NCBI RefSeq assembly: GCF_026421305.1
Contig: NZ_JAPJBQ010000008.1
Coordinates: forward strand, 1-64,000
Direction: 5' to 3'
DNA from: Dyella silvae
Lineage (GTDB): Bacteria > Pseudomonadota > Gammaproteobacteria > Xanthomonadales > Rhodanobacteraceae
Length of the DNA stretch: 64,000 bases
Below the pieces are notes generated by a model. The model was given only the letters and a program-made list of their open reading frames with translations. It was not told the DNA's origin and made no database searches. How positions within the stretch are numbered: the stretch's first letter is position 1; each line of letters starts with the position of its first letter. This document shows positions 11,701 through 38,471 of this stretch, one piece after another. The translations under genes and the position numbers were made by a program.

Positions 11701-14700
11701 CAAGATCGACCGCAAGTCGCTGCCCGCACCGCCGGTGCAAACCGTGGCCGCCAACCGCGAACGCCAGGCACCGCAGACCGATACCGAGCAGCGCGTTGCC
11801 GCCGCCATGGAGTTGGTGCTGGCATTGCCCGGGCTCGACGTGCGCGACAACTTCTTCGCACTGGGCGGCCACTCGCTATTGGCAGCCCAGCTCACCTCAC
11901 GACTCAATCGCGAGTTTGAGATCACGCTTTCGTTCCGCACGCTGTTCGACGCACCCACCATCGCCAGCCTCGCCGCGACCATCGACCAGCTCAAGGCCAG
12001 CGGCACGGCCACCGCGGCACCTGCCATCGTGCGCCGCAACGATCAGCAACGCGCACCGCTGTCATTGATGCAGCGCCGCCTGTGGGCACTGGAAGAACTG
12101 CAACCCGGCCGCGTCACCTACAACGCGCCATCCGCCCATCGCCTGCGCGGCAAACTCAACGAAGCGGCGTTCGATCAGGCCATGCAGGAAATGATGCGCC
12201 GCCAGCCGATCCTGCGCACGGCGTTCCGGCGCAACGGCGATGATGTCGAACAAGTGGTGGAAGACCTCACGCTGACGCTGTTCCCGGCGGAAGATCTTTC
12301 CTCGCTGCCGGAAAGCGATCGCGAAGCGGTGCTGATGGAGCGCCTGCAAACGCTCACCGATACGCCGTTCGAGCTCACCCGCGCACCGCTGTTCAGCGCC
12401 CGCATGTTCAAGCTGGCCGACGACGAGCATGTGTTCTTCTTCATGCCGCACCACATCATCTGGGATGGCTGGTCGTTCGACATCCTGTATACCGAACTCT
12501 CGCAACTCTACAAAGCGTTTGCCGAAGGCCACCCCTCGCCGCTGCCTGAGCTGCCTGTGAGTTACGGCGACTTTGCTACCTGGCATGCCACCTGGCTGGA
12601 GAGCGAGCCCTTCAAGGCGCAGCTCGGCTATTGGCAGAACCGTCTGGGCAAAGCGGAAGAAACGCGCGCGTTGCCCACCGACCATCCGCGCCGCCCCGGC
12701 ATGTCCGGCGTTGGCCGCACCGAATGGATCCGCGTACCGAAAGACGCCACCGACGCCATGCACGAGGTCGCACGCAAGGCCGACGCCACGCTCAACATGG
12801 CCTTGCTCGCGCTGTACTACGTGCTGCTGAGCGGCATGACTGGCGAGCGCCATCTGGTGGTCGGCACGCCGGTACGTGCACGCAACCAGACCGAAGTCGA
12901 AGCCGTGATGGGTTACTTCAACAACCTGTTGCCGTTGCACATCACTGTCGATCCGTCGCAGCGCTTCATCGACTTCGTGCGCCAGGTGAAGGACGCTGCC
13001 ATCGAGAGCTTCGGCCACCCGGATGTGCCGCTGGAGTACCTGCAGCGCGAGCTGCGCAGCGGTCACGGCAACGGTGCCGTGCTCTATCAGGCGCTGTTCT
13101 CGTTCCAGGACGCGCGCCAGCGCATCGTCGACTGGGGCGGTCTGCATCACGAGCAGATCCTGCTGTTCCAGAGCGGCGCCACCGAAGACCTCGGCCTGTG
13201 GTTCCTGGAAAACACCAAGGGCCTGCTGGGCGGCGTCACCTACAACGCGGACATCCTGCAGGCCGCCACGGCCCGCTTGCAGCGCGATCGCTACCTCACC
13301 CTGATGGCACGGGTCAGCGCGGATCCGCTGCAGACCATCGACGCACTGGTCGCCGCCAATGACGACGAGTTGGCACAGCTGGCGCAATGGAACGCCTCCG
13401 CCAGCCCCGCCGAATCAACCTTCGCCGATGTCGTCACGCAATTCGAAACACAGGCCGATAGCCATCCGCAGCAACCGGCTCTCGCCGTCGGCAACTGGAA
13501 TACGTCGTACGCGGAGCTGGAGACGCGCAGCAACCGCATCGCCGCCTGCCTGCGTGCGCGTGGCGTAAGCACCGGAACCGCCGTGGGCCTGTGCGCCCCG
13601 GCGGGCGTAGGCCGACTGGCCGCATTGCTGGGCACGCTCAAGTCGGGTGGCACGCTCGTGTTGCTCGATCCCGAAGATCCGCCGGCACGGTTGCGCCATA
13701 TCATCGACGACGCCGATGTATCGGTGCTGGTAGGCAACTCGGAGCTCGACAACGCGCTGAGCTGGACGAAGGGCAAGACCCTCTGGCTGGATACGGATAC
13801 CAGCGAGATCATCGCCGCCTCCGCTGAGCGCTCGCCCGATCGTCGTATCTCGCCCGATGATCTCGCTTTCGCCGTGTACGTGCCGGGCGAGCTTGGACAA
13901 GCACGCGGCACCGCCGTAACGCATCGCACGCTTGCCCTGCTGATTCAGGGTTTGCGCACCGCGCTGGATACGTCGGAAGCCGACCGCGTGCTGGGAACCG
14001 CGCCTACCACCACCGGCCTTTCCGTCATCGAACGCCTCCTGCCGTTGTGCAACGGTGCGAAGTTCGTACTTGGCAATCATCAGGCCGATGGCGAATCGCT
14101 GGCCGGACTGATGCAGGCCAGCGACGCCAACGTCGTGTTCGCATCCCCCGCGCTGTGGCAATCGCTGCTCGCCACCGGTTGGCAAGGTCAACCGCAGCTC
14201 AAGGCCGTGTGCACCGTCAGCGCGCCACCACCGGCCCTGGCTGCGGAACTGGCCAAACGCACCGCCGGCGTGTGGAGCCTGCACGGCGCGGACGACAGCG
14301 CCATCATCGCCACCATCGGCAAGATCGATCGCCCGGAAGATGGCGTGCACAGCGGTCATGCGCTCGCCGGCACCATCGCCTGGATACTGGATGCGCAGCA
14401 GCGCCCCAGCCCCGTCGGCGCCATCGGCGAGTTGCATCTTGCTGGTGCCACGCTGAGCACGCCGTTCGGCAAGCGCGCGACAGCGCTGCGCACCATCAGC
14501 CTGCCCAACACACCAACACTCGTTTCCACCGGCATCCGCGCCCGCCGTCTCGCCGACGGTCAGTTGCAGGCGCTCGGCCGTTTCGATCGGCGTCTGCGGA
14601 TACTTGGCCATGACGTCGACCCCACGGCCGCGGAAACCCTGCTGCGTGCACAGCCCAGCGTGGCACAGGCGGTTGCCGTGGCACGCACGCATGCCGATGG

Positions 14701-15208
14701 CGAAAACCAGGTAGATGCCTACGTCGTCGCCGCACCCGGCCATGCGCCCGATCGCGAACAGCTGCGCACGTTGCTCAGCAACGCGCTTTCCGCCAACGAG
14801 GTACCGCGGCATCTGGTGCTGCTCGACCGGCTGCCGCTGCTCCCCGACGGCAGCGTAGATACGGCGGCCCTGCCCCTGCCCGGTGCTCACACCGACGATC
14901 TGTCGGAACTGGCCGTGCAGCCCAAGACACCGGGCGAGCAACTCTTGGCCGACATATGGCGCGATCTGTTGCACATCACCCAGGTACGCACCAGCGACAA
15001 CTTCTTCGATATCGGCGGGCACTCGCTGCTTGCCGTCGAGATGGCGGCGCGAGTGCAGCGTGACACGGGCGCGCGACTGAACTTGCTCGACATCGCCAAC
15101 GGCACGCTGGCCACGCTGGCGGCGGAGCTGCCGGATACCCCGCAGGCGCCGGCAGAGAAGCCAGCACCACTCGGACAAAGGTTACGGAAACTGTTTGGAA
15201 AACGCTGA
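8792..15208 (+). CDS. NRPS, C-A-PCP-C-A(degenerate)-PCP, no thioesterase
   Basis: A 2138-residue NRPS translated from the ATG overlapping the upstream stop. C1 has HHIVCDG (H161, H162, D166). The first A domain has YTSGSTGKPKG from 638 and specificity positions I read as DILQLGVVWK, eight of ten matching the usual glycine code. The first PCP has S1028. C2 has HHIIWDG (H1220, H1221, D1225). The second A domain is eroded: the A3 loop reads YVPGELGQARG (1696-1706), YGPTE is replaced by HGADD, the FD of core A4 is lost, and the catalytic lysine of NGK becomes serine (S2021 in PDGSVD). Its PCP is intact (S2078 in IGGHSLL). The protein then stops after a short basic tail. No TE, reductase or terminal C domain follows, so release is unexplained. 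Confidence 0.92.
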   Translation: MSPNDTTPLSAAPVAVDYDPFAGSALERVVPPTAPQREVWLASTLEPAASLAYNESISLRLRGELNVSALQTALQQLMDRHEALRATFSNDGDELYIAAQQDLPCPVRDLSWQGADEREAEIALTLQHAVTTPFDLENGPLVRAELLQLVPQDHLLVFTAHHIVCDGWSFGVIVRDLAALYAQAIGAGTEPAPADTFADYALAEAAHEQSEEGRSAEAYWLKRFADATPSLDLPTDHPRPRQRSFSSLREDLMLDASLIADVKRMGAQRNASLYATLLSAFGLLLQRLSGQDDVVIGIPSAGQATGGHDTLVGHCVNVLPLRIAIDPATPFATSLLQVRSDLLDAFDHQQYTLGSLLAHLALPRDPSRLPLVGVLFNLDQALDERSVTFPGLSFEFAGNPRAFENFELFVNAVQVNGGVRLECQYNADLFDAVTIRAWLDAYATLLRHATLTPEAASGALALVSDAASVALQAMQPARTPYPAQQLAHEYFEAQVDRAPSRSAVAAGSDLLTYAQLEARANRIAHVLRARGIGGGSLVGLSLSRSPNMVAALLAVLKSGAGYVPLDPSFPPDRLSFMAEDAALAALIVDDAASAAFSFPESQVLSLTRDAALIETASAERLPRDDQAATPESVAYLIYTSGSTGKPKGVRVPHRATANFISSMQQAPGISEDDRLVAVTTLSFDIAFLELMLPLSVGAAIVLASYDDVRDGTALRRLVEESGATFMQATPAGWRILLESGWAGRDGFKALAGGEPLPLDLAELLLERCAELWNVYGPTETTVWSTLWRVHDPRAGIFIGQPIANTTVYILDGHGSLCPLGMPGEMYIGGDGVTLGYLNRPELNTERFLPDPFATTAGARMYRTGDRGRWLANGQLEHRGRLDFQVKIRGYRIELGEIETALADLPEVARAVVVAREDRPGDVRLVAYVVPNEGAAIEETDLCPRLRQRLPDYMVPQHMMALAAIPLLPNGKIDRKSLPAPPVQTVAANRERQAPQTDTEQRVAAAMELVLALPGLDVRDNFFALGGHSLLAAQLTSRLNREFEITLSFRTLFDAPTIASLAATIDQLKASGTATAAPAIVRRNDQQRAPLSLMQRRLWALEELQPGRVTYNAPSAHRLRGKLNEAAFDQAMQEMMRRQPILRTAFRRNGDDVEQVVEDLTLTLFPAEDLSSLPESDREAVLMERLQTLTDTPFELTRAPLFSARMFKLADDEHVFFFMPHHIIWDGWSFDILYTELSQLYKAFAEGHPSPLPELPVSYGDFATWHATWLESEPFKAQLGYWQNRLGKAEETRALPTDHPRRPGMSGVGRTEWIRVPKDATDAMHEVARKADATLNMALLALYYVLLSGMTGERHLVVGTPVRARNQTEVEAVMGYFNNLLPLHITVDPSQRFIDFVRQVKDAAIESFGHPDVPLEYLQRELRSGHGNGAVLYQALFSFQDARQRIVDWGGLHHEQILLFQSGATEDLGLWFLENTKGLLGGVTYNADILQAATARLQRDRYLTLMARVSADPLQTIDALVAANDDELAQLAQWNASASPAESTFADVVTQFETQADSHPQQPALAVGNWNTSYAELETRSNRIAACLRARGVSTGTAVGLCAPAGVGRLAALLGTLKSGGTLVLLDPEDPPARLRHIIDDADVSVLVGNSELDNALSWTKGKTLWLDTDTSEIIAASAERSPDRRISPDDLAFAVYVPGELGQARGTAVTHRTLALLIQGLRTALDTSEADRVLGTAPTTTGLSVIERLLPLCNGAKFVLGNHQADGESLAGLMQASDANVVFASPALWQSLLATGWQGQPQLKAVCTVSAPPPALAAELAKRTAGVWSLHGADDSAIIATIGKIDRPEDGVHSGHALAGTIAWILDAQQRPSPVGAIGELHLAGATLSTPFGKRATALRTISLPNTPTLVSTGIRARRLADGQLQALGRFDRRLRILGHDVDPTAAETLLRAQPSVAQAVAVARTHADGENQVDAYVVAAPGHAPDREQLRTLLSNALSANEVPRHLVLLDRLPLLPDGSVDTAALPLPGAHTDDLSELAVQPKTPGEQLLADIWRDLLHITQVRTSDNFFDIGGHSLLAVEMAARVQRDTGARLNLLDIANGTLATLAAELPDTPQAPAEKPAPLGQRLRKLFGKR

Positions 15209-28140: not shown

Positions 28141-28467
28141 ATGAACCTGATTCGCCTCGACCCGCATCTGCGGGTGGACCCTTCACAGCGTCTGCGCACC
28201 CCCGGCGAGGTGCTGAAGCACGACTACCTGATACCCCGCGCCATGACCCTCTCCGCCCTCGCCCGCCGCACGGGGATCACCGTGACCAGTCTGCGGCGAC
28301 TCATCATCGGCGAGGTCCCCATGCGCACCACCTACGCCATCCGCCTCGCCGTGGTACTCAACACCAGCGCGCTCTACTGGATGCTGCTGCAAGTGCAGTG
28401 CGACCTGGAGCGGGAAAGGCGTGGGCGCGATGTCGCGATAAAGGAGCCAAGTGCTTCTTCGCGTTAG
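28141..28467 (+). CDS. HigA-like XRE-family antitoxin/regulator without toxin partner
   Basis: A 108-residue helix-turn-helix protein of the HigA type. The family hallmark TPGEVLKHDYLIPRAM is followed by the HTH (TLSALARRTGITVTSLRRLI) and TALRLA-like TTYAIRLAVVLNTS. HigA neutralises the HigB ribonuclease and represses its own operon. No HigB-sized gene lies immediately upstream: the 109-residue upstream protein has no HigB features. The protein is therefore an orphan antitoxin or a regulator. Inverted repeats just upstream could be its operator. A degraded copy of the GGGGTCAGAGTGC palindrome begins at its 3' end (28448-28513), and the last residues of the protein may derive from it. Confidence 0.75.
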   Translation: MNLIRLDPHLRVDPSQRLRTPGEVLKHDYLIPRAMTLSALARRTGITVTSLRRLIIGEVPMRTTYAIRLAVVLNTSALYWMLLQVQCDLERERRGRDVAIKEPSASSR

Positions 28468-28572
28468 GTCGCCTAGAAAAGGAAGCAGGAAAGCACTCCG
28501 ACCCCTTTTCTGTAGGCTGGCTCAAACTATGAAAGAATCGCTCGTGCGCTCGGGAGCGCAACGAGGGGAACC

Positions 28573-28908
28573 ATGAGAAAGCTACTTCTATCCGTGATGT
28601 CGGTGGTTGCGCTTTTTCCTGTCACCGCTAGCGCAGCGCAGGGGTACAACACCGTAAAAGACCTGAGGCTATTGTCCGACGAATCGCGCGCCTTTTTTAT
28701 CGGTGGCGTTTACCTTGGCTTCAATGAAGGCCTTGGAGTCGGCGACAAGCCGACTTGCCAAGCACCAACTGGATCGTCCATCACTGCCATCTCTGCCATG
28801 GTGGAGAGTCAATGGCGTGCATTCCCGCAACAGTACGATGACCTGGAGTCGTCCATTGGCGTAGTGAAAGCAATTTGCACTCTATGGCCGCCAGCTAAGC
28901 CAAAGTAG
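28573..28908 (+). CDS. Small secreted hypothetical protein
   Basis: A 111-residue protein with a clear signal peptide (MRKLLLSVMSVVALFPVTASA, cleavage expected after ASA). The mature part, about 90 residues, has two cysteines (TCQAP and AICTLWP) that could form a disulphide. The layout, with GGVYLGFNEG and a C-terminal helix before a final cysteine, is reminiscent of Rap1a/Tai-type small periplasmic proteins, but the match is too weak to call. GAGGGG precedes the ATG. A rho-independent terminator follows directly. It stands alone in a region of small accessory genes. Confidence 0.6.
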   Translation: MRKLLLSVMSVVALFPVTASAAQGYNTVKDLRLLSDESRAFFIGGVYLGFNEGLGVGDKPTCQAPTGSSITAISAMVESQWRAFPQQYDDLESSIGVVKAICTLWPPAKPK

Positions 28909-28918
28909 TTTCCAAAGG

Positions 28919-28948
28919 AAAAGCCCAGCGCTAGGCCGGGCTTTTGTT
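28919..28948 (+). terminator. Rho-independent terminator
   Basis: AAAGCCC-AGCGCTAGG-CCGGGCTTTTGTTTT: a GCCC/GGGC stem followed by a T-rich run, placed just after the small secreted protein gene. Confidence 0.85.
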
Positions 28949-29052
28949 TTGCGTGTTCAGTATTGCGATCAGCGCTTCATGGCTCGGCCCTCGCAATCGG
29001 ACACAGCTATTCGATCATGCTAGTTTCGTGCAGGGCGAAACGATGTCAGGCA

Positions 29053-29220
29053 TCAGCCGCCGTTGTGCTTCTTCTTGACTGAGTCGAAGATCGCCTCATA
29101 GGCCTCAGCGACCTTGCGCTTCACGTCATCCGCAGTGCCATTGGTCAGAGCCGACCCGTGCGGGTTCGAAACGACTGCGACCAGGATGTCCTTTGCGATT
29201 TCAGATGCCGTTTGCGACAT
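29053..29220 (-). CDS. Small soluble hypothetical protein (55 aa)
   Basis: A 55-residue acidic-then-basic helical protein, starting MSQTASEIAKDILVAVV and ending KKKHNGG. The ATG is preceded by GGAGAG at good spacing, which decides the start; longer in-frame extensions run into the palindromic repeat and are not coding. It has no membrane segment or recognisable domain. It is divergent from the neighbouring small genes. Function is unknown. Confidence 0.5.
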   Translation of the reverse strand: MSQTASEIAKDILVAVVSNPHGSALTNGTADDVKRKVAEAYEAIFDSVKKKHNGG

Positions 29221-29311
29221 GCTCTCTCTCCGTTGGTTGTTGTAACCACTGGCATAAGGCCAAGGCCTCCACGTTTCAAGCCCAGTCCCACTGCCAATGT
29301 CACACGGAGAC

Positions 29312-29375
29312 GAAAAAGGGGTGAGAGTGCTTTTTCTAAAGATTTGAAAAAAAGCACTCTGACCCCTTTTCGCTC
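29312..29375. repeat. GGGGTCAGAGTGC palindrome, copy 1
   Basis: GAAAAAGGGGTGAGAGTGCTT and AAGCACTCTGACCCCTTTTC are arms of a near-perfect inverted repeat. It is the first full copy of a family seen again at 30857, 30962, 31209 and, degraded, at 28448, 30738 and 37653. Such palindromes often surround RAYT (REP-associated tyrosine transposase) genes, but none is present here. Confidence 0.85.
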
Positions 29376-29441
29376 GAAGGATTCGCCTTATAGAACGTAC
29401 ACGCCGGACATTGACCGCCATAGCTCAGCGCGACCCGACAG

Positions 29442-29570
29442 GTGATCGTCGAAACTGACGGCTACGCTCGGAAGACGGACGTCACTGATTGGGGCAAGGT
29501 GGCTCTGACCGTAGTGTTCGGCTTCGCCGGGATCGGTGGCATCGCCCGCGGTCCTCGCAAAAATCAGTGA
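29442..29570 (+). CDS. Possible 42-aa membrane peptide or gene remnant
   Basis: A GTG-initiated frame of 42 codons (VIVETDGYARKTDVTDWGKV ... ending PRKNQ) with a hydrophobic stretch LTVVFGFAGIGGIA. No good ribosome site is visible. It may be the surviving 3' end of a truncated gene, since it starts soon after the palindrome at 29312-29375. Confidence 0.25.
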   Translation: MIVETDGYARKTDVTDWGKVALTVVFGFAGIGGIARGPRKNQ

Positions 29571-29641
29571 CCCTCCAATTGGTATAGGCGTCTGGCTCCC
29601 AGGCGCCCCGTTATACTTCGACCCATCACAGGGGAGAGCCT

Positions 29642-29989
29642 ATGCGCTACTTCGGGTCAGCGATCATTCTTGCCGCAGCAGCTTGGCCTGCCAGTGCTTC
29701 AGCTCAGGGGGCGAACGAGCGGTTCACATTGAGCTGCACATACACCTATGGCCAGTCGGAGCCGATTACTGCCTCGCTGCTCGTGGACCCAGGAAAGCGG
29801 CTAGTTGGCGTCTATCCCGCCTCCATCACGGATAGACAGATCCGCTTCCACATCACGCAAAGTGCGTTTCCCGAGGAGACGACGACGACCATTGACCGCT
29901 TCAGCGGTGAGATCATGGTGCATGACGACAAGGCCGGCGTGACCCTCGCCAGCGGCACCTGCCACAAGGAAGATAAGCAGCGGTTCTGA
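29642..29989 (+). CDS. Small secreted hypothetical protein
   Basis: A 115-residue protein with a signal peptide (RYFGSAIILAAAAWPASASA, cleavage after ASA). The mature part of about 95 residues is predicted to be mostly beta-strand (FTLSCTYTYGQSE, IRFHITQSAFPEE, GEIMVHDD) and has two cysteines (LSCTY and GTCHK), likely a disulphide in the periplasm. CAGGGGAGAGCCT precedes the ATG. The next gene is 21 bp downstream and has a very similar leader (CAGGGGAGTGACTC), so the two are probably co-transcribed. No family is recognised. Confidence 0.6.
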   Translation: MRYFGSAIILAAAAWPASASAQGANERFTLSCTYTYGQSEPITASLLVDPGKRLVGVYPASITDRQIRFHITQSAFPEETTTTIDRFSGEIMVHDDKAGVTLASGTCHKEDKQRF

Positions 29990-30010
29990 CCATCGACAGG
30001 GGAGTGACTC

Positions 30011-30400
30011 ATGGAAGCCATCATCAGGCGGCTATTGATCGTGCTTACCGTGCTTGGTATGGCATTGGGCGCCGGCATTTCAGGATGGGCCCAGAGGCAG
30101 CATCGGGAGGAGGTCGCAGCCTCTTGGCGCATGTACGACATCGCTGCTGCAGCCTACAAACCATGCAAAGCAGATGCGAAGGGCGACTTGGCCGTGGAAC
30201 AGCTCTGCTGGGACATCTATTGGAAGATCAAGTTGGATTCCGACACTAAGAGAACCGAGGCCGACCGGCTCCGCACGCCGTTCTTCGCTGGCTTGTGGAT
30301 TATCGGCTGCTCCCTCTTCCTCTGGCCCATCTTCTTCCTGGCACGCTGGATCCTCACCGGAAGTGTTCGACGCGAGCGCAAGCCAGTTGGGGAGGTCTAA
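30011..30400 (+). CDS. Small two-helix membrane protein
   Basis: A 129-residue protein with hydrophobic helices at about 7-27 and 90-115 (FFAGLWIIGCSLFLWPIFFLARWIL). A soluble loop of about 60 residues between them has two cysteines. With both ends likely cytoplasmic, the loop would be periplasmic. AGGGGAG precedes the ATG. The gene is followed within three bases by another GTG-started gene with GGAGGT overlapping its own 3' end, so an operon of three is likely. I do not recognise a family. Confidence 0.6.
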   Translation: MEAIIRRLLIVLTVLGMALGAGISGWAQRQHREEVAASWRMYDIAAAAYKPCKADAKGDLAVEQLCWDIYWKIKLDSDTKRTEADRLRTPFFAGLWIIGCSLFLWPIFFLARWILTGSVRRERKPVGEV

Positions 30401-30402
30401 CT

Positions 30403-30726
30403 GTGTTCGGCTGGCTATTCAAGAAAAAGACACCGCCTCCGCTGCCCAAGAGCGATCCACTACAGCCCTACCGCGGCTCCGATATCAAGGAGAAGCTGGC
30501 CCACGATGATCAGCGGATGCTCGCAGCTGGCATCAAGTACGCCATCTGGCTCAGCTCTGGCGCGCCATGCGCCGATGACGAGATGACAGCGCTCCATCAG
30601 AAGCTCGACGGTAAGCGCTACTCCATTGCAAAGGGCATGAGGGTCGGCAAGCGCTACATCCGACCCGGAATAGAGGACGGCTGTCGGTGCTACCACAAGG
30701 CTGTGATCCCAGGTTTCAAAGAATGA
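30403..30726 (+). CDS. Small basic hypothetical protein
   Basis: A 107-residue cytoplasmic protein, lysine-rich at the N-terminus (GWLFKKKTPPPLPKSD) and ending in RPGIEDGCRCYHKAVIPGF. The closing C-R-C is reminiscent of the end of some phage head-morphogenesis proteins, but nothing else supports that. GTG at 30403 is chosen because GGAGGT ends six bases upstream. It follows the membrane-protein gene directly. A degraded palindrome (30738-30793) and then further palindromes begin just after its stop. Confidence 0.5.
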   Translation: MFGWLFKKKTPPPLPKSDPLQPYRGSDIKEKLAHDDQRMLAAGIKYAIWLSSGAPCADDEMTALHQKLDGKRYSIAKGMRVGKRYIRPGIEDGCRCYHKAVIPGFKE

Positions 30727-31021
30727 TCCAAGACAAGAGAAAGGGGGTCGGGTTCACTTCCGTACCTCAGAGGTGAACTTGGCCCCATTTCCAGCAGTCG
30801 AGGCAAAAACCCTGCGCTTCGCGAGCACACGCCCTACCCACCTACCACCCAGGGAGGGAAAAAGGGGTCAGAGTGCTTTTTCTAAGGACTAGAAAAGCAC
30901 TCTGGCCCCTTTTCGCTTATGGTCGAAATGCGCAAGACGTAGCCGTCCTTTATCGACTCCGAGAAAAAGGGGTCAGAGTGCTTTTTTCTAGTCCTTAGAA
31001 AAGTACTCTGACCCCTTTTTC

Positions 31022-31114
31022 TCTGAGGAGCTGTTCGATGAGGAGCTGCGGAAGTTTGAGGAGACGGTGTTTGGGTACAGCCGTCCCCCTTACAACTTCT
31101 ACGACAACTACTGA
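31022..31114 (+). pseudogene. 3' fragment of an unknown gene
   Basis: A frame leaving the palindrome at 30962-31023 reads SEELFDEELRKFEETVFGYS then RPPYNFYDNY and a stop at 31112-31114. The acidic helix and aromatic C-terminus look like a genuine protein end whose 5' part has been lost at the repeat. Confidence 0.5.
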
Positions 31115-31215
31115 GCCCGTTCGATAGGCCAACGTGTGAATGCGAAAACGTACAGCATCACAATGTTGACCAGCGGTATGAACATGACCAGAGATAAGAC
31201 GCCGCTGAAGAAATA
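31108..31215 (-). pseudogene. 3' fragment of a small membrane protein gene
   Basis: On the minus strand a frame leaving the palindrome at 31209-31270 reads YFFSGVLSLVMFIPLVNIVM then LYVFAFTRWPIERAQ and a stop. This is a typical hydrophobic C-terminal helix of a small integral membrane protein. Its 5' part is missing at the repeat boundary, and its stop overlaps the stop of the convergent fragment. Confidence 0.5.
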
Positions 31216-31411
31216 GGGGTCAGAGTGCTTTTTTTAAGGACTAGAAAAGCACTCTGACCCCTTTTCGCTCACCCCTTTTCGCTCTCAGGAATCAGCGCAT
31301 TAACTACGCGCGCCGATACCTTGCCTTCAATTCTTTCTGGCTTTTCTGCCTTGAAGCGCTCCACCGCCACATACCAATGCCACATCATCTGCTCACTGCA
31401 ACGAACGAGGA

Positions 31412-33607
31412 TTAGGCGTCGTTCGGAAGAGAGTGCACCGACGCCAACCACCCTTGGGCTTCGTCCAGATCCAGGTTCAAGCTCGCATACGTCGCGCGCA
31501 GAAGCTTCGGCGGCAGGGCCCAGTCCCACTTTTGTCGTTGCAGGTTCTTCGCCTCGGCCAGGAGGTCGTCAACTCCTGGCATCGCCTCATGGGCCAACGC
31601 CATCACGCGTTCAATGATGACCTCAGTCCGTAGATCGCCTTTGGTGACCTCAACTCCGAGTGGCGCAAGCGCTGATGGCAGACCTGCCGCCGACAGCCGG
31701 CATGCTAGTGCCTCATTGGCAGCATCCCCCAGCCAGGTCAGTAACAGGCAATAGGGCCCCTGATCAACCAACCAGCGCTCATCCAAGGCCAGTCCCTGGT
31801 ACGCCAATCGCCCCTCATCGAGGAATCGCTGGGCTGTGGGATCGAGGAATCGTACAAGCCCGCTGCCCCGATAGAGCTCTCGCATCCTCTGGCGCACGCG
31901 GGAATGGATGCGACCGCCTGTCCCACTGAACAGCGGCGGTGCACCACCCTTTGACGGGGTTACGAAAATGGTCTTGTCGGAGTCGTTCACGGACTCCACG
32001 AGCCAAGTGCGTCCGGCAAACAGGATGCGCTGCCCTGCAACCAATAGCTGGTGCACCGGGAGTGTACCTAAGGCCTTGCCGCCAGTGACGACCCGAAACT
32101 CTTCGTCGTTAAGGAAGGCCGCGTAGAACGTGTAGTGGTTGACCAGCTGATCGCCGCGAGGACCGTGCAGGAGCAACCCAGAGCCATCCTGCTGAAGGAT
32201 CTTCTCCTGACCGAGGTGCCGCAACAGCTCGGTAAACATGGCCGGACTAAGCCCCTCGAATGGCGCGCCTGATCCGCAGAGGAGCCGGTACGCCGACGAG
32301 GCATTCATGCCGCCGTACTGAGCAATGACGGACAGCAGCTGCTGCACCAAGGTAGAGAGGTGCGCCCCATGCGTGACGGGCGGCTCGAACCAATTTTCCA
32401 GCAGCAACGAAATGCTGGCAGCGATTTCGACAACGTCTAGGCGTAGCTGCGAGGAAAAGGTGGATTGGCTGCCGAGCGCGTCTTCAATCACGAAGCCGCG
32501 CAGAATCGCCGACTCACCACGGCGCCGGCCCGACCGCCCGAGCCGCTGACGCAGACTGGCCACCGACGGCGGCGGGCCGATCTGAGCAACGCTCTTGACG
32601 GCGCCGATGTCGATGCCAAGCTCGAGCGTACTGGTGCAGACAGCCGTGGCAGGCCTGTCCTTTTGCTTCAGCGCCACCTCAGTGTCGTTGCGGATCTCGC
32701 GAGACAGGCTGCCGTGATGGGGCCAGAACTCATTGGCGATCCGCGCTTCTTCGCACAGACCGCTCAGCAGGTGCGCATAGCGTTCCACCTCTCGGCGGCT
32801 GTTGGGGAAGACCAGGTTGTTGGATCCGCGAAGATTGGTGAAAAGATCCCGCGCGATCGCGGTGGTGGACAGGCCATCGTTGGGGCCAGGGGCCTTGTCC
32901 AACCGGGCCGGCTCCTCGAACCCCTTCACCAAAACCTTCAGCGTCGCACCGCCCGAGCCCGTCTCCACGATCGCCACCGGCCGGCCGCTGCGGAGGAACG
33001 TGGCAGCCAGCTGCATATCGCCAAGGGTGGCGGACAGCCCAATGCGCGGCACCTGCCGCCCTAGAACGGAATCAATTCGGTGCATCAAGGACTGAAGCTG
33101 CTTGCCGCGCTCCGAGCCAATGAACGCATGAAGCTCGTCAACGACGAAGTACACAGCGTTCGAGAACGCCCCGGCCACAGCCGTGCCCCGGTTGCAGAGC
33201 ATCGCCTCGAGGGATTCGGGCGTGATAAGGAGGACGCCGGACGGCTTCTTCAGGAATCGACTTTTGACCGAGCTGGACACGTCCCCGTGCCATGGCCAAA
33301 CCGGAATCTCCAGTGTCTCGCACAGACGCTCCAGTCGGCCGAACTGGTCGTTGATCAGAGCCTTGAGCGGACTGACATAGACGATGAGACCGGCAGGGTT
33401 GTGTTGGAGCAGGTGTGTCAGCGCCGGCAGAAATGCCGCCTCGGTCTTTCCCGCTGCCGTTGCAGCCGCAACGATAACGTCTTGGTCCCCGGCGACGATC
33501 AGCGGGATCGCTAGTTCCTGCACGTCCCGCAAAGCTTCCCATTGCTCCACCCAAAGGAAGCGCTGGATGCGTTCGTCGAGCAGATGAAAGGCAGTGGACG
33601 CCGTCAT
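31412..33607 (-). CDS. Lhr/BrxHI-like superfamily 2 DEAD/DEAH-box helicase
   Basis: A 731-residue SF2 helicase, third gene of a three-gene minus-strand operon. A Q-motif-like segment (23-34) is followed by motif I ATAAGKT (49-55), DELH (157-160), SAT (192-194), CTSTLELGIDIG (324-335) and motif VI QRLGRSGRR (354-362). The C-terminal half has a beta-rich segment (about 480-560) as in Lhr-type helicases and lacks nuclease motifs. Lhr-like helicases translocate on single-stranded nucleic acid; the BrxHI version belongs to type 2 BREX phage-defence loci. It starts six bases after the ATPase gene stops. GC is a little lower than the core genes. The partner set suggests DNA or RNA remodelling in a defence context. 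Confidence 0.85.
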   Translation of the reverse strand: MTASTAFHLLDERIQRFLWVEQWEALRDVQELAIPLIVAGDQDVIVAAATAAGKTEAAFLPALTHLLQHNPAGLIVYVSPLKALINDQFGRLERLCETLEIPVWPWHGDVSSSVKSRFLKKPSGVLLITPESLEAMLCNRGTAVAGAFSNAVYFVVDELHAFIGSERGKQLQSLMHRIDSVLGRQVPRIGLSATLGDMQLAATFLRSGRPVAIVETGSGGATLKVLVKGFEEPARLDKAPGPNDGLSTTAIARDLFTNLRGSNNLVFPNSRREVERYAHLLSGLCEEARIANEFWPHHGSLSREIRNDTEVALKQKDRPATAVCTSTLELGIDIGAVKSVAQIGPPPSVASLRQRLGRSGRRRGESAILRGFVIEDALGSQSTFSSQLRLDVVEIAASISLLLENWFEPPVTHGAHLSTLVQQLLSVIAQYGGMNASSAYRLLCGSGAPFEGLSPAMFTELLRHLGQEKILQQDGSGLLLHGPRGDQLVNHYTFYAAFLNDEEFRVVTGGKALGTLPVHQLLVAGQRILFAGRTWLVESVNDSDKTIFVTPSKGGAPPLFSGTGGRIHSRVRQRMRELYRGSGLVRFLDPTAQRFLDEGRLAYQGLALDERWLVDQGPYCLLLTWLGDAANEALACRLSAAGLPSALAPLGVEVTKGDLRTEVIIERVMALAHEAMPGVDDLLAEAKNLQRQKWDWALPPKLLRATYASLNLDLDEAQGWLASVHSLPNDA

Positions 33608-33613
33608 GCACGC

Positions 33614-34912
33614 TTACAACTGGAACGAGGCAAGCTCGTCGTCCTGTTCCACCGCCAAGTCTCCGGCGCCGCCGGTGTCGCGCGCAACATCGATGCCGCC
33701 CAGGAGAGCCTGCCAGTCCGCGCCTGGGTTCTGCTCCAGAACCGCCAGCAAGTTGATGAACGCAGTGATGGTTGTCCGGGGTGTGCGGTAAAACGAGTCG
33801 CCTATACGTCTGTCGCAATGCTCCATGAAGCGGCTGATGCCGTCATCAGGGATGAGGTATTTGGCGGAATCGCCGCTGGCGTACACGTGGCGGATGTTCT
33901 GCAGCAGGACAAAAAAGTCCTCAACTGTGAGGCTCGCAAGACGTATTACCGGACCGCTGAAGTCCACCAGGCCGTCCTGCGCAAACGTATTGCGGGCCAA
34001 TCGGCTCTCCAACGCCGGATAGCTGTACAGACCGCGCCGAGTATCGAGGAGAAACTCAGGGGTCCCACCAAGCACGAAGCCCAACCCCACTGCGGTGCCC
34101 TGGAAGGAGTCATTGAGCATGCGCAGCAGCTGCTCGTAGTTGGACTGGCGAGCCTGCGCGTTCGCCAGCTTAAAGAGATTCACCAGCTCATCGAGGCACA
34201 CAAGCAGGCCGGCATAGCCGGCGAGAGTGACGAAGCGCGCCATGAGCTTCAGCTGGTCGTAGATCGAGGCATCGTCCACGATCGTACGAACCCCCAACGC
34301 TGCCCGCGCATCGGTACGCGTGGCAAATTCGCCGCGCAGCCACCGAAGGGCATCTGCCTTCAGCTGTTCGTTGCCCTCCTCGAACCCACGATAGTAGGCC
34401 GCGATTACATCGGCAAAATCGTACCCGTTCACCAGCTCTGCGAGCTGCGCCAGCTTCGCGCGGATGACCTGGTCAGTGGGTTGCGCATTCGCCCTTGCCT
34501 CGCTGGCGGCAGTCGCGACAAATTTCTCGACCACAGCAGGGAGGGCACCACCTTCGGGCTTTGCTCGGGTGGCCACATTGCGCATCAGCTCGGCATATAG
34601 CGAGCGCGCCTGGCCGCCGGTCGCATGCAGCCGGCGATCCGGGTTCAGATCGGCGCTGGCGACGACGAGCTTACGCTCCATAGCTATGGCACGAACAAGA
34701 TTCAGGAAGAACGTCTTACCCGATCCGTACTCGCCGATCACGAGGCGAAAGGATGCCCCGGTATCGGCCACCCGATCGATGTCACCTACGAGCGTCTCGA
34801 CCTCACGCTTGCGACCGACCTGAATGAGATGTTGGCCGGTGCGAGGCACAACGCCGATCCGCAGCGATTGAATGACCGAATCCCGGTCCTTGGGTCGAAT
34901 GGGTGTGCTCAT
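33614..34912 (-). CDS. BrxD-like P-loop ATPase
   Basis: A 432-residue AAA-type P-loop ATPase of the DUF2791/BrxD type. The N-terminus, with VIQSLRIGVVPRTGQHLIQV then GR, is the family opening. Walker A is GEYGSGKT (60-67), with FFLNLVRAIAM after it, and Walker B is LLVCLDE (236-242). GGTPEFLLDTRRGLYSY is a sensor-like region. BrxD is an ATP-binding subunit of type 2 BREX loci and has a helicase gene next to it, as here. The start overlaps the TerB gene stop by four bases, so the two should be made at linked levels. The name BrxD is by resemblance; the locus is not a complete BREX. Confidence 0.82.
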   Translation of the reverse strand: MSTPIRPKDRDSVIQSLRIGVVPRTGQHLIQVGRKREVETLVGDIDRVADTGASFRLVIGEYGSGKTFFLNLVRAIAMERKLVVASADLNPDRRLHATGGQARSLYAELMRNVATRAKPEGGALPAVVEKFVATAASEARANAQPTDQVIRAKLAQLAELVNGYDFADVIAAYYRGFEEGNEQLKADALRWLRGEFATRTDARAALGVRTIVDDASIYDQLKLMARFVTLAGYAGLLVCLDELVNLFKLANAQARQSNYEQLLRMLNDSFQGTAVGLGFVLGGTPEFLLDTRRGLYSYPALESRLARNTFAQDGLVDFSGPVIRLASLTVEDFFVLLQNIRHVYASGDSAKYLIPDDGISRFMEHCDRRIGDSFYRTPRTTITAFINLLAVLEQNPGADWQALLGGIDVARDTGGAGDLAVEQDDELASFQL

Positions 34913-37362
34913 GCTTTCAGTCTCTCAGTAACGTCAGCGTTGACTTCAACGGGGTCGTCCCCTTCCGTAAGAGGGTAGTCAAAGGCATCGTAGGCAGCGT
35001 CATTGATGGTCTCCAGGGCGCCATCCAGCATCAGCGATAGGCTGGTTGCCAAACCCTGCAGCTCTGCACGCGTCCATTCCGCACGCTCTAGCAGCTCGCG
35101 AACAAGGGCACTGTGCGGGCCGTCGAGCCCCATGAGGCTATCGGTGTCGGGCAGCGCGAGCTCGATCGCCGGGTCCGTCGTGACATCCGCCGGATCTTCT
35201 TTAAATACATCGGCGAGCAGCGCAGTGACTGTCGCCGTCTCGCGCTGTAACGCCTCTATGCGCTTGGCATCGAGCTTAAGCCCCCTGGCCGGCTTACGTT
35301 CGGGGACGGCGCTACCAGCCGCCGCGGCATGCACGCTGCTGAAGAGGTGCTGGCTGTCCAGGCCAAGCATGGCGTAGACCTTTTCCAACAGCACCATCTC
35401 GGCGCGCGAGACCGTGCCATCAACCTGAGCCAGCGTGACCATAAGCGCAGCGATGCGCTCCTTGGAGGCGCTATCTGCTGAGCCCAGCTTTTTCTTCAGC
35501 GATGAGATGGCCACAGGAGCCGCCGTTAGCAACCTCAAATGCGCGCCGAGCCGGCGGCGCTGGGCCTCGGTGAGCTGGCGCCAGCTGCCAATCTCCTGCA
35601 ACAGATGCTGCTCCTCATCCGCGCTGAACTCGCCATCCGCATGGGCGCCAGCAGCCGCGACCTGCAAAGTGAGGGCGGCGACCTTGTATTCATCGCTGTC
35701 GCGCGACGCCTCGGGCGTAGCAATTAGCGGAAAAACGACGATGGGATCCGACATGCCAGGCACCCTTGCGCCCTGGAGAAGATCTGGCTCGACTCCCAGA
35801 CCCTGCGTCGCCAAAATACCTGCCAGTGCTCGGATCCTGTCTCCGGATAAGTCGGGAGTACCCACCTGCCTCAGGAAATCATCCAGCGGCAAAGTGAAGC
35901 CCGACTCGCCGGAGCAGCGGCCGCGCAAAGTCTCCACCTGCGCCTTCGCTTTAGTTGGCCACACCTCGAACGGCAGCAGTGTCCGTCCGGCAGGCGTGCC
36001 CCGCACGCTCGCATCTTTACCGAGAGCGCGGCTGTACCCGTCCAGCTCAGCCGTGCACTGATTGGCCAACTCAAGCAATTTCTCGATCGGCGCAGATAGG
36101 CCAGTCACGTCCGGCAGATCCCCGACTACTCGAGTCAGTTCGGTGCGCCCCTGCAGGCCGGCCGAAGCAGGACGGTAGACGACGGCCAATTTCTTTCGAT
36201 TCTTGGGTAACACCAGGCCAGTGCCATAGCGCTCCCCATACCGGGCACGGAATAGCTGATCAAATTCCTCGGCACAACGGCTCGCCGGAGTTCGAAGGTA
36301 GACCGTGGGGTTATAACGGACCCAAGCCAGTGCCAGCGACGCGGACAATGGCACGCGATCGATCGATGCTTGGCCCAGGGCGACCTTGAGCGGCCACGGC
36401 AAACTGTAGCTTCGAACCATCGGGGGCAGCGCTGACGCATAAGTGCGCTCTGGTACTGCAACGACTGCCATCCATTCCAATAAACCTTCGGCAAAAGTTC
36501 GAAATGATGGCGAACCGTCAGCGTAAACCGCCGACAGCTGTGTGATCTCGTCGCGAATGATCTGCCATTCCGTCGGGCCCACAACAGAATAGCCATCCAC
36601 GATAACGCGCTGCTCCAGGCCGTAGAAGAAAAGGAATACGTACCCTATATCGCAGTCTGGGTGACGGCGCCCCGCCACCAGCCAGTTGAGGTAAGCGCGA
36701 CGCGCCGTTGGGTCGAGCTCAGCGTAGCTGGGCCAGTAGGATGTCCGACTGACTGTGAAGTTCCCCGTACTCCTGACGTTCAAATGCGGCTGAATCAGGC
36801 TGGGGTTGTTGTAGCCGCCCGCTGCGCGGCCAGTGCCAACGTAGAGCAGGCCGCCGGGCACAGTGGTGCCAGCCACGTTGACGGTCTGTCCCTGGGGGAT
36901 CCATCGTGCCGCGCTCAGTTCCGGTGGGCGCTGCGGGAGCTGAAACTCGGACGGGTTGGCGGCATCTCGGCTGCCGGACAGTTGAAACTCTGCGGGCTCG
37001 GCTTCCTTGTCTACAAAGCGATCCGTGATTTGCGACAACATAGAGAAGAACTCCGGCTCTGTTGCCGGAGGTGGCACCTGTATGGGAAGGGCGGGCGGCT
37101 GCCCGCCTGCCGGCGATGATGAGGCACGCGCCGGCGGCCTGTGACTCGAGGCCATGATCTGCTCGAGCGTCCGGTAGTCGGAGCTCTTCTGGCGAGTGCT
37201 GAGGTGACGCTTGATCGCGCGCGCCCCCCAGCGCAGCACCATCAGCCCGATGCCGATAATGGCAAACCAACCCCAAATTCTCCACGGAATGAGTGCCACT
37301 ACGAAGGCGATGACGATGATTCCGATCAAGGCGTCGCCGCCATTCCCTGAGCGTCGGCTCAT
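34909..37362 (-). CDS. Membrane-anchored TerB-N/TerB domain protein
   Basis: An 817-residue protein, first gene of the operon. Two adjacent hydrophobic helices (about 11-28 and 31-45) are followed by a Pro-rich linker. The TerB-N domain (about 160-290) is marked by RWIPQGQTVNVAG, PGGLLYVGTG, WPSYAELDPTARRAYL and DIGYVFLFFYGLERR-like GLEQR. A TerB-like helical region near 600-690 has acidic loops (AHADGEFSADEEQHLL and QVDGTVSRAEMVLLEK), and a TerB-C-like end follows. TerB proteins bind metal and are linked to tellurite resistance and stress or phage-response systems. Membrane anchoring and coupling to an ATPase and helicase suggest it senses or recruits at the membrane. I do not know a characterised protein of this exact layout. 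Confidence 0.82.
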   Translation of the reverse strand: MSRRSGNGGDALIGIIVIAFVVALIPWRIWGWFAIIGIGLMVLRWGARAIKRHLSTRQKSSDYRTLEQIMASSHRPPARASSSPAGGQPPALPIQVPPPATEPEFFSMLSQITDRFVDKEAEPAEFQLSGSRDAANPSEFQLPQRPPELSAARWIPQGQTVNVAGTTVPGGLLYVGTGRAAGGYNNPSLIQPHLNVRSTGNFTVSRTSYWPSYAELDPTARRAYLNWLVAGRRHPDCDIGYVFLFFYGLEQRVIVDGYSVVGPTEWQIIRDEITQLSAVYADGSPSFRTFAEGLLEWMAVVAVPERTYASALPPMVRSYSLPWPLKVALGQASIDRVPLSASLALAWVRYNPTVYLRTPASRCAEEFDQLFRARYGERYGTGLVLPKNRKKLAVVYRPASAGLQGRTELTRVVGDLPDVTGLSAPIEKLLELANQCTAELDGYSRALGKDASVRGTPAGRTLLPFEVWPTKAKAQVETLRGRCSGESGFTLPLDDFLRQVGTPDLSGDRIRALAGILATQGLGVEPDLLQGARVPGMSDPIVVFPLIATPEASRDSDEYKVAALTLQVAAAGAHADGEFSADEEQHLLQEIGSWRQLTEAQRRRLGAHLRLLTAAPVAISSLKKKLGSADSASKERIAALMVTLAQVDGTVSRAEMVLLEKVYAMLGLDSQHLFSSVHAAAAGSAVPERKPARGLKLDAKRIEALQRETATVTALLADVFKEDPADVTTDPAIELALPDTDSLMGLDGPHSALVRELLERAEWTRAELQGLATSLSLMLDGALETINDAAYDAFDYPLTEGDDPVEVNADVTERLKA

Positions 37363-37687
37363 ACCACTATCCCCTTAGGGTGGAGATCGTCGAGGGCCTT
37401 CGTCTGGTCACAACTGGACCAAAGAGAAGCCTCGGTCGATGGCTCGACCCGTCGTCGAACAAACGGTTTCTATCCCATGGCTGCGCAGTCTATCCGAGAT
37501 GAGGTGACTGCTTGGATCTGTGTACCCGTGCACACCAGGCTCGGTGACAGCGAGCGTAGGCCCCGCTTCAACTCAAGCCTCCAGCGGGTCCAGTGTCGTC
37601 CGTGGACAACCGCCCTCCCCTAGAAAGAACCTGATTCCCTTTTCATCCAAAACCCGGGTCAGAGTGCACTTTCGGAATTCATTACTC
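37363..37687. other. Intergenic gap upstream of TerB operon
   Basis: No gene seen. It must contain the promoter for the TerB-ATPase-helicase operon (minus strand) at its left side, but I cannot place boxes reliably. A degraded GGGTCAGAGTGC palindrome lies at about 37653-37703 and overlaps the 3' end of the membrane-protein gene. Confidence 0.6.
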
Positions 37688-38158
37688 TTACTCTGATCCC
37701 TTACTTGGCTCGGGCATAACCGCTGCCTGCTCATGAGTTGTCGTGGCCATCATTGATGAAGACCGACTCCCTCGATACAGCGGACTGCCCGGATTCCCCA
37801 TCCGGCGTGCGAGCCACACCATCATGCCGAGTGCGAAAACATTCACGCCCATCTGGCCGAAGTTGATCCAGCCCAGCGAGAAGACCAGATTCAGGCCCAG
37901 CGTAAAGGAAAAAGTAAACGCACCGGTCACGAAGTGCAGTAGTTGCACTGCCCAAAACAGTTGACCCAACGGTGCAGATCTATCATCGCCGCGGAAACAA
38001 CCGACACCCGCAACAATGCCGAGCACGGCCAGCATCAGGTTGAGGGTGATGAAGAGTGCCGGGTAGCCGATCTTGGACGCTAACCAAATGGTCCAGACGA
38101 TGCCGGTTGTTCCGTGAAATACGAGAACGCCCGCGATGATCTTGTCTTGCTTTGCCAC
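37688..38158 (-). CDS. Small four-helix membrane protein
   Basis: A 156-residue integral membrane protein with four hydrophobic helices (about 8-28, 33-53, 66-88, 95-115) and a polar C-terminal tail rich in Ser, Thr and Glu. The last residues (PEPSKGSE) are read from the degraded GGGTCAGAGTGC palindrome, so the original C-terminus may have been altered. There is no recognised family; the arrangement resembles DUF-type small inner-membrane proteins. It is transcribed toward the TerB operon, with tRNA-Leu and a terminator upstream. Confidence 0.6.
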   Translation of the reverse strand: MAKQDKIIAGVLVFHGTTGIVWTIWLASKIGYPALFITLNLMLAVLGIVAGVGCFRGDDRSAPLGQLFWAVQLLHFVTGAFTFSFTLGLNLVFSLGWINFGQMGVNVFALGMMVWLARRMGNPGSPLYRGSRSSSMMATTTHEQAAVMPEPSKGSE

Positions 38159-38314
38159 ATGCTCTCCCTTGCAGCGTTATTCGCAGCCTGTCCCTTCGTA
38201 GCTGCGTGAGCGACATCGTACCGAACTAGGGGTATCTATCAAGGCGCTACGAATGGCTGCTAATGCCATGGCCCGTAAGCGACGAAAGCTTTAGCCACCA
38301 CTCGTCATCAACGC

Positions 38315-38386: not shown

Positions 38387-38471
38387 TGGTGCCCAAGGGG
38401 GGACTCGAACCCCCACGCCTCTCGGCGCTACCACCTCAAGGTAGTGCGTCTACCAATTCCGCCACCTGGGC
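38387..38471 (-). tRNA. tRNA-Leu (anticodon GAG)
   Basis: On the minus strand the sequence folds as an 85-base leucine tRNA with encoded CCA. The acceptor GCCCAGG pairs with CTTGGGC, the anticodon stem CTACC/GGTAG holds loop TTGAGGT (anticodon GAG, reading CUC/CUU), a long variable arm is present (GCGCCGAGAGGCGT) and the T-arm is GGGGGTTCGAGTCCCCC. It lies just downstream of secG, as in related bacteria. Its 3' end faces the accessory region. Confidence 0.95.

What the first reader, a model, noticed from the sequence alone, without database searches (positions are those of the whole stretch)
31412..37362. TerB-N protein, BrxD-like ATPase and Lhr/BrxHI-like helicase as one operon
The three genes overlap or lie within six bases, in the order TerB protein, ATPase, helicase. 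The ATPase and helicase resemble BrxD and BrxHI from type 2 BREX, but no PglX methylase, PglZ or PglW is present; instead a membrane-anchored TerB-N protein leads the operon. TerB domains have been linked by comparative genomics to stress and phage-response systems. I cannot match this exact trio to a named, characterised system. A compact membrane-linked defence or DNA-processing module is the best inference.
Basis: partly seen in the sequence, partly recalled or inferred. Interest (0 to 1): 0.85.

Follow-up and report, generated by a model that had tools for sequence, protein, structure and literature searches.

The report
A Shango anti-phage defence operon
The three genes are a copy of Shango, a bacterial anti-virus system already described and tested in other bacteria, so the find is a new example of a known system, although how Shango works is still not known.

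Summary
Three minus-strand genes (34909-37362, 33614-34912, 31412-33607) overlap by 4 bases and lie 6 bases apart. The exact trio does have a name: it is Shango, SngA-SngB-SngC. PADLOC's Shango models match at E 2e-90, 2e-177 and 7e-260, and for the ATPase and helicase they beat the BREX models by over 400 bits. Shango cloned from Pseudomonas aeruginosa PA14 inhibits phages (PMC10250203, passages). So the defence reading is supported; 'no named system' is not.

The locus lies beside tRNA-Leu(gag)-secG-tpiA, in an interval not shared by any of 18 relatives compared. None of 60 sampled relatives has SngA. The A-B-C order recurs in 14 of 15 loci fetched by SngA similarity.

What I can add is anatomy. 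SngA has an N-terminal membrane hairpin and a flexible linker; 18 of 25 SngA have such a hydrophobic start. SngB carries a conserved C-terminal tail. No nuclease or methylase domain was recognised in the three proteins. My mechanism, a membrane-tethered ATPase that loads a DNA helicase onto entering DNA, is inferred, not shown (about 0.35).

The parts
34909..37362 (-). sngA: 817 aa. N-terminal membrane hairpin (about residues 10-53), low-confidence linker (about 51-144), TerB_N (156-360), TerB (561-671), TerB_C (687-816)
   Evidence: PADLOC SngA PDLC03958 E 2.1e-90; Pfam domains; AlphaFold2 model mean pLDDT 73.7, pTM 0.52; hydropathy
33614..34912 (-). sngB: 432 aa BrxC/BrxD-family AAA+ ATPase; Walker A GEYGSGKT, Walker B LDE; C-terminal tail DDELASFQL
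   Evidence: PADLOC SngB PDLC03959 E 2e-177 against BrxD 5.1e-47; Pfam BrxC_BrxD E 1.1e-151; Walker residues invariant in 15 of 15 aligned
31412..33607 (-). sngC: 731 aa superfamily 2 DExH helicase, Lhr/BrxHI-like
   Evidence: PADLOC SngC PDLC03960 E 7e-260 against BrxHI 6.9e-117; motifs I, II, III, VI invariant in 13 of 13 aligned
38387..38471 (-). tRNA-Leu(gag) whose 3' side borders the variable interval
   Evidence: ARAGORN and Rfam; tpiA-secG-tRNA block conserved in relatives, similarity stops at or within 80 bases of the tRNA end
28410..38306 (.). variable interval holding the operon; no match to it in the downstream flanks of 18 relatives
   Evidence: blastn, E 1e-8, flanks of 6.5-16 kb
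29312..31269 (.). four copies of a hairpin repeat (GGGGTCAGAGTGC...GCACTCTGACCCC) on the 3' side of the operon, with a partial copy at 37656-37673 on its 5' side; looks like a REP element (label from recall)
   Evidence: the repeat finder; pattern scan

Best explanation
The operon is a complete Shango (SngABC) anti-phage system, most likely acquired horizontally next to tRNA-Leu. Identity as Shango: about 0.97, shown by profiles. Anti-phage function of this copy: about 0.8, inferred from intact catalytic motifs and published activity of homologs. Proposed mechanism, about 0.35, inferred: SngA is held at the inner membrane by its N-terminal hairpin and projects its TerB_N/TerB/TerB_C body into the cytoplasm on a flexible linker, where it senses entering DNA or recruits the other two proteins to it. 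SngB, an AAA+ ATPase, assembles on that DNA and, through its conserved C-terminal tail, hands it to SngC. SngC translocates on and unwinds the DNA, blocking its expression or replication or exposing it to host nucleases, because no nuclease or methylase domain was recognised in the operon itself.
For: All three PADLOC Shango models match over nearly their whole length and, for SngB and SngC, outscore BREX models (SngC 863 against 390 bits, SngB 589 against 159). Order A-B-C on one strand recurs in 14 of 15 fetched loci and, without intervening genes, in 6 of 7 annotated loci read. The S. faviae plasmid locus that this SngA hits (2e-85) was itself called Shango by DefenseFinder/PADLOC in PMC10221251. 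Published phage assays for PA14 Shango. Walker residues invariant in 15 of 15 SngB, helicase motifs in 13 of 13 SngC. Hydrophobic N-terminus in 18 of 25 SngA. SngB fold hits include RdrA, ORC2 and TnsC. SngC groups with BrxHI, DruE and DpdJ in a published tree (PMC12278908, passages).
Against: No experiment on this strain. A 2026 review lists the mechanism of Shango as unknown (PMC12926258, passage). Five of 25 SngA clearly lack the hydrophobic N-terminus and two fall just under my cut-off, so the membrane cannot be strictly required everywhere. The SngB fold search is unspecific: the top hit is the unfoldase HslU, only two hits pass E 0.001, and the RdrA, ORC2 and TnsC hits have TM (by query length) 0.34-0.42 and rmsd 6-12. 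The role of the SngB tail is a guess from conservation.
Confidence: 0.85

Rival explanations
1. Shango acts by abortive infection: TerB-domain SngA senses infection stress (metal or membrane state) and triggers SngB/SngC to damage DNA metabolism, so the culture survives while infected cells die.
For: Modest plaque effects but strong protection of liquid cultures are reported for PA14 Shango (PMC10250203, passages). Conserved acidic TerB residues D576, D648, E655 would fit metal binding (recalled property of TerB). A link of TerB domains to stress systems is recalled; of such a paper only the title phrase was matched in other papers' text.
Against: No recognisable toxic effector domain in any of the three proteins. 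[quoted passage not shown]
Confidence: 0.25
2. A BREX remnant or BREX variant that lost PglX, PglZ and PglW.
For: SngB hits BrxD (E 5e-47) and SngC hits BrxHI (E 7e-117); a shared clade of SngC and BrxHI is published.
Against: Shango-specific models score over 400 bits higher; NCBIfam BrxD equivalog cut-off of 350 bits not reached, 156 scored; a TerB gene leads the operon and the trio recurs as a trio.
Confidence: 0.02
3. A housekeeping or stress DNA-repair module rather than defence.
For: The helicase also hits the ligase-associated repair helicase model TIGR04121, below its cut-off (206 of 850 bits); no phage test in this strain.
Against: Found in 1 of 61 sampled genomes of this genus, family and order, itself included, in an interval not shared by 18 relatives; repeated company of mobile and defence genes; published anti-phage activity of homologs.
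Confidence: 0.05

Closest known systems
Shango (SngABC), Pseudomonas aeruginosa PA14 and Escherichia coli
   Same: Same three families and order; all three PADLOC models match strongly
   Different: SngA here has a two-helix hydrophobic N-terminus and long linker, like the two Xanthomonas and one same-order relative; many other SngA show one hydrophobic segment, five of 25 none. The PADLOC SngA match starts only at residue 109.
BREX type 2 (BrxD, BrxHI)
   Same: ATPase and helicase are distant relatives
   Different: No PglX, PglZ or PglW among the ORFs scanned; scores far below Shango models and below the NCBIfam BrxD cut-off
Zorya (ZorABCD)
   Same: Works-like comparison only, recalled: membrane component plus cytoplasmic DNA-acting enzymes. 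A Zorya-like locus (zorA annotated, further genes recognised from recall) lies divergently next to Shango in Polymorphobacter
   Different: No ZorA/ZorB hit in the three proteins
Druantia DruE and Dpd DpdJ helicases
   Same: SngC grouped with them and BrxHI in a published helicase tree (PMC12278908, passage read)
   Different: Other subunits unrelated (recalled)
PG_1108, Porphyromonas gingivalis (PDB 2h5n)
   Same: Only solved protein found for any part of SngA: the TerB domain (E 4.8e-05 by profile; the four best Foldseek hits, E 0.05-0.1)
   Different: Single small domain of unknown function

Membership tests
Shango | SngA: TerB-domain protein matching the SngA model | tested here: met
   PDLC03958 E 2.1e-90, 302.8 bits; TerB_N, TerB, TerB_C
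Shango | SngB: BrxC/BrxD-type ATPase matching the SngB model better than BrxD | tested here: met
   588.7 against 159 bits; Walker A and B present
Shango | SngC: SF2 helicase matching the SngC model better than BrxHI | tested here: met
   862.7 against 389.5 bits; motifs intact
Shango | Three genes adjacent, one strand, order A-B-C | tested here: met
Shango | Anti-phage activity | not testable with these tools
   Published for PA14, not for this strain
BREX type 2 | PglX methylase, PglZ and PglW present with BrxD and BrxHI | tested here: not met
   None among the 33 window ORFs scanned; this strain's other contigs were not scanned for them
BREX type 2 | BrxD equivalog score at or above NCBIfam cut-off | tested here: not met
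   156.2 bits against 350
Zorya | ZorA/ZorB membrane motor proteins | tested here: not met
   SngA's only PADLOC hit is SngA, and SngB's are SngB, BrxD and a weak TmtA; Pfam shows no such domain

The most novel reading that the evidence does not exclude
Shango is a membrane-tethered DNA-entry sentinel: SngA's N-terminal anchor and long linker place a SngB ATPase ring and the SngC helicase at the site where phage DNA enters, and SngB's conserved C-terminal peptide is the docking tag for SngC or SngA. That would be a nuclease-free, methylation-free way to tell incoming DNA from host DNA, by place of entry.
Probability: 0.3. Interest if true: 0.6.

Novelty: new member of a known kind. Interest (0 to 1): 0.2.

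Why it matters
The operon itself is an ordinary further example of Shango. Its use is as a comparison case: a divergent SngA (42-44% identical to its nearest relatives found) next to a strongly conserved SngB (80%) shows which parts of Shango are fixed (ATPase, its C-terminal tail, helicase motifs, TerB acidic residues) and which vary (membrane anchor and linker). These give direct mutants for testing a system whose mechanism a 2026 review lists as unknown (passage).

Tried and rejected
BREX remnant: rejected on scores and missing genes. Nuclease hidden in the middle of SngA: no support; the Foldseek search gave no hit at E 0.001 and its four best were the TerB domain. Integrative element with a duplicated tRNA end in this genome: the 23-base tRNA 3' end occurs once with up to 2 mismatches in the 22 contigs, and no integrase was recognised in the ten nearby ORFs given to Pfam. 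Copies in named phage records: no match, though relatives lie on IMG/VR contigs (3 loci by SngA, 8 by SngB, two contigs in both). A solved structure for SngB by sequence: none at E 0.01. Enrichment near defence genes was not tested against a background set: 95 of 168 neighbour ORFs (180 aa or longer, with the 19 of the remnant locus L091 left out) were scanned, and only 25 of 89 matching families are shown. Rows dropped before counts: of 8 non-self SngA matches two weak ones were not fetched; of 12 non-self genomes five with partial, weak or fragmented matches were not fetched. L083 and L090 were left out of the SngC alignment (short ORF; wrongly started ORF). My first Walker expressions were too strict (24 and 21 of 26); looser ones gave 26 and 25 of 26, L102 being the miss for Walker B.

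Full report
Observation. The three ORFs exist exactly where reported, all on the minus strand: 34909-37362 (817 aa), 33614-34912 (432 aa) and 31412-33607 (731 aa). The first two overlap by four bases and the last two are six bases apart. Pfam finds TerB_N, TerB and TerB_C in the first protein, BrxC_BrxD in the second, and DEAD plus Helicase_C in the third.

Identity. PADLOC holds models for exactly this trio, and they are the best hits by a wide margin: SngA E 2.1e-90, SngB E 2e-177 (BrxD second, 5.1e-47), SngC E 7e-260 (BrxHI second, 6.9e-117). The NCBIfam BrxD equivalog cut-off is not reached (156 of 350 bits). The operon is therefore Shango; DefenseFinder itself was not available to run. 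In the passages I read of PMC10250203, Shango of P. aeruginosa PA14 is a TerB-like protein, an ATPase and a DEAD/DEAH helicase. It gave a 10-100-fold drop in plating for many, not all, phages and strong protection of liquid cultures. That paper credits another report, in E. coli, with about 10-fold effects on two phages (its reference 22, which I recall as Millman et al. 2022 and did not read). A second link: the S. faviae plasmid locus hit by this SngA (record read) is the one that PMC10221251 lists as SngA/SngB/SngC at the same coordinates, using DefenseFinder and PADLOC (passages and table rows read).

Distribution. SngA was found in 1 of 61 genomes (this one and 60 relatives), the window's own, in 9 of 369 genomes drawn from the class, two of them weak, and in 13 of 398 drawn from the phylum. 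All three counts include the window's genome. I fetched 13 of these loci plus two Xanthomonas loci. SngA, SngB and SngC lie in order on one strand in 14 of 15. One of the 14, L083, has a short SngC at a contig end, and the fifteenth, L091, is a fused or rearranged remnant. In 7 annotated records read, the three are neighbours in 6, and other genes separate SngA from SngB in the seventh. Nearest relatives found are the two Xanthomonas loci and one genome of the same order (SngB 80%, SngC 65%, SngA 42-44% identity). A Shango stretch from an IMG/VR contig finds a place covering at least 80% of it in 437 of 5,426 E. coli genomes. Plasmid records with a match to SngA number 678, of which 197 cover at least 80% of it; the shorter matches may be other TerB proteins.

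Genomic setting. The operon lies on the 3' side of tRNA-Leu(gag), next to secG and tpiA. A long match to this block is found in 19 of 20 genus genomes, the window's included; the other, 86% complete, gave only a tRNA match. In the 18 relatives whose downstream flank I fetched (16 kb in 16 of them, 10.5 and 6.5 kb in two), DNA similarity stops at or within 9 bases of the tRNA end in 15 and 75-80 bases beyond it in three. No flank matches window 28410-38306 at E 1e-8. In 5 of 18 the small gene at 28141-28467 has a relative 3-15 kb from the tRNA, perhaps marking the far edge of the variable interval. Among 99 ORFs that I chose from those flanks are phage integrases (3 with PF00589, 4 with its arm domain) and transposase families. 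They also match 103 defence families; the 25 shown are nearly all methylase models hit by two ORFs each. One relative (G015) has a partial second tRNA copy about 7 kb away, and G001 a weaker partial match near its tRNA; the window genome has none. So this looks like a tRNA-side hotspot, but the element that brought Shango here is not identifiable.

Defence company. Ninety-five neighbour ORFs of 14 other Shango loci include matches to Wadjet JetA/JetB, a CBASS cyclase and 2TM effector, AbiEi/AbiEii, Lamassu LmuB and several PADLOC candidates, and seven phage integrases. On an E. coli chromosome Shango lies between transposase genes and an integrase beside tRNA-Arg. On a Polymorphobacter plasmid it is divergent from a Zorya-like locus and followed by a PD-(D/E)XK nuclease and a UvrD helicase. 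The same nuclease-helicase pair starts two bases after SngC in Sulfitobacter. The other annotated records read show many hypothetical genes, with HipA- or RelE-type toxin genes in two. I did not run a background control, so this shows company, not enrichment.

Anatomy. The SngA model (mean pLDDT 73.7, pTM 0.52) shows helices 10-23 and 27-53, a stretch below pLDDT 50 at 51-144, then a folded body. A strongly hydrophobic N-terminal segment (15-residue mean of 1.9 or more in the first 110 residues) is present in 18 of 25 SngA, two more are just below (1.75, 1.87), and five lack it; some of the 25 are close relatives of one another, and unannotated starts were taken as the longest frame. TerB residues D648 and G649 are invariant and D576 and E655 nearly so in 15 sequences. 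In SngB, Walker A (G60, G63, G65, K66, T67) and Walker B (D241, E242) are invariant in 15 of 15; in a wider set a Walker A pattern is found in 26 of 26 and a Walker B pattern in 25 of 26. The SngB tail fits a pattern like DDELxSFxL in 23 of 26, the other three being near misses. Foldseek matches of the SngB model (mean pLDDT 75.8) are generic AAA+: HslU is first, only HslU and the RdrA ring pass E 0.001, and archaeal ORC2 and TnsC are among the first 21 (TM by query length 0.34-0.42, rmsd 6-12 for RdrA, ORC2 and TnsC). I read the last three as the more telling because they act on nucleic acid (recalled). In SngC, GKT, DExH, SAT and QRxGRSGR are invariant in 13 of 13. PMC12278908 (passages read) puts SngC with BrxHI, DruE and DpdJ in a potentially distinct clade.

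Mechanism. Shown: identity, intact motifs, the hydrophobic N-terminal hairpin in the sequence. Predicted: its helices and the flexible linker. Inferred from families: ATP-driven work on DNA by SngB and SngC. Guessed: that SngA tethers the machine to the membrane where DNA enters, that the SngB tail is a docking tag, and that blocked or unwound phage DNA is then dealt with by host enzymes. Abortive infection triggered by TerB sensing is the main rival. A 2026 review lists Shango's mechanism as unknown (PMC12926258, passage), and the listings of my other searches showed no paper on it. Most subscription papers are outside that library, so one may exist.

Verdict. A correct and well-placed observation of an already named defence system: new member of a known kind, low surprise. 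The open part is how Shango works, and the conserved tail and variable anchor are concrete handles on that.

Noticed in passing
L103:6015-11496 and L107:13483-19544: A PD-(D/E)XK nuclease gene and a UvrD-helicase gene (AddAB-like pair, label from recall) follow Shango in two alphaproteobacterial plasmids, in one of them two bases after SngC; possibly an accessory effector missing from the window's operon.
   Followed up: partly
L107:1-12481: Shango divergently next to a Zorya-like locus (zorA, OmpA-family, EH-signature, helicase) on a Polymorphobacter plasmid.
   Followed up: no
   Followed up: partly
L094:7314-8882: A 94-kb IMG/VR contig carries a 522-aa protein with a similar hydrophobic N-terminus and a stretch like SngA's TerB_N region, but the window's SngB and SngC find no match in the 16 kb held; perhaps a different TerB_N system.
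   Followed up: partly
L097:6072-7985: In an IMG/VR contig a resolvase-like sequence (judged by eye) is in frame with the rear part of SngA, suggesting insertion of a mobile element into Shango.
   Followed up: no
window 29312-31269 and 37656-37673: Hairpin repeats with core GGGGTCAGAGTGC on the 3' side of the operon and a partial copy on its 5' side; REP-like.
   Followed up: partly
window 1521-15208: A hybrid PKS-NRPS gene (2424 aa) and an NRPS gene (2155 aa), followed by a polysaccharide/glycosyltransferase cluster to about 25.5 kb.
   Followed up: no
L104:10031-20851: In a Burkholderia contaminans plasmid SngA is separated from SngB-SngC by about 5 kb of other genes.
   Followed up: no
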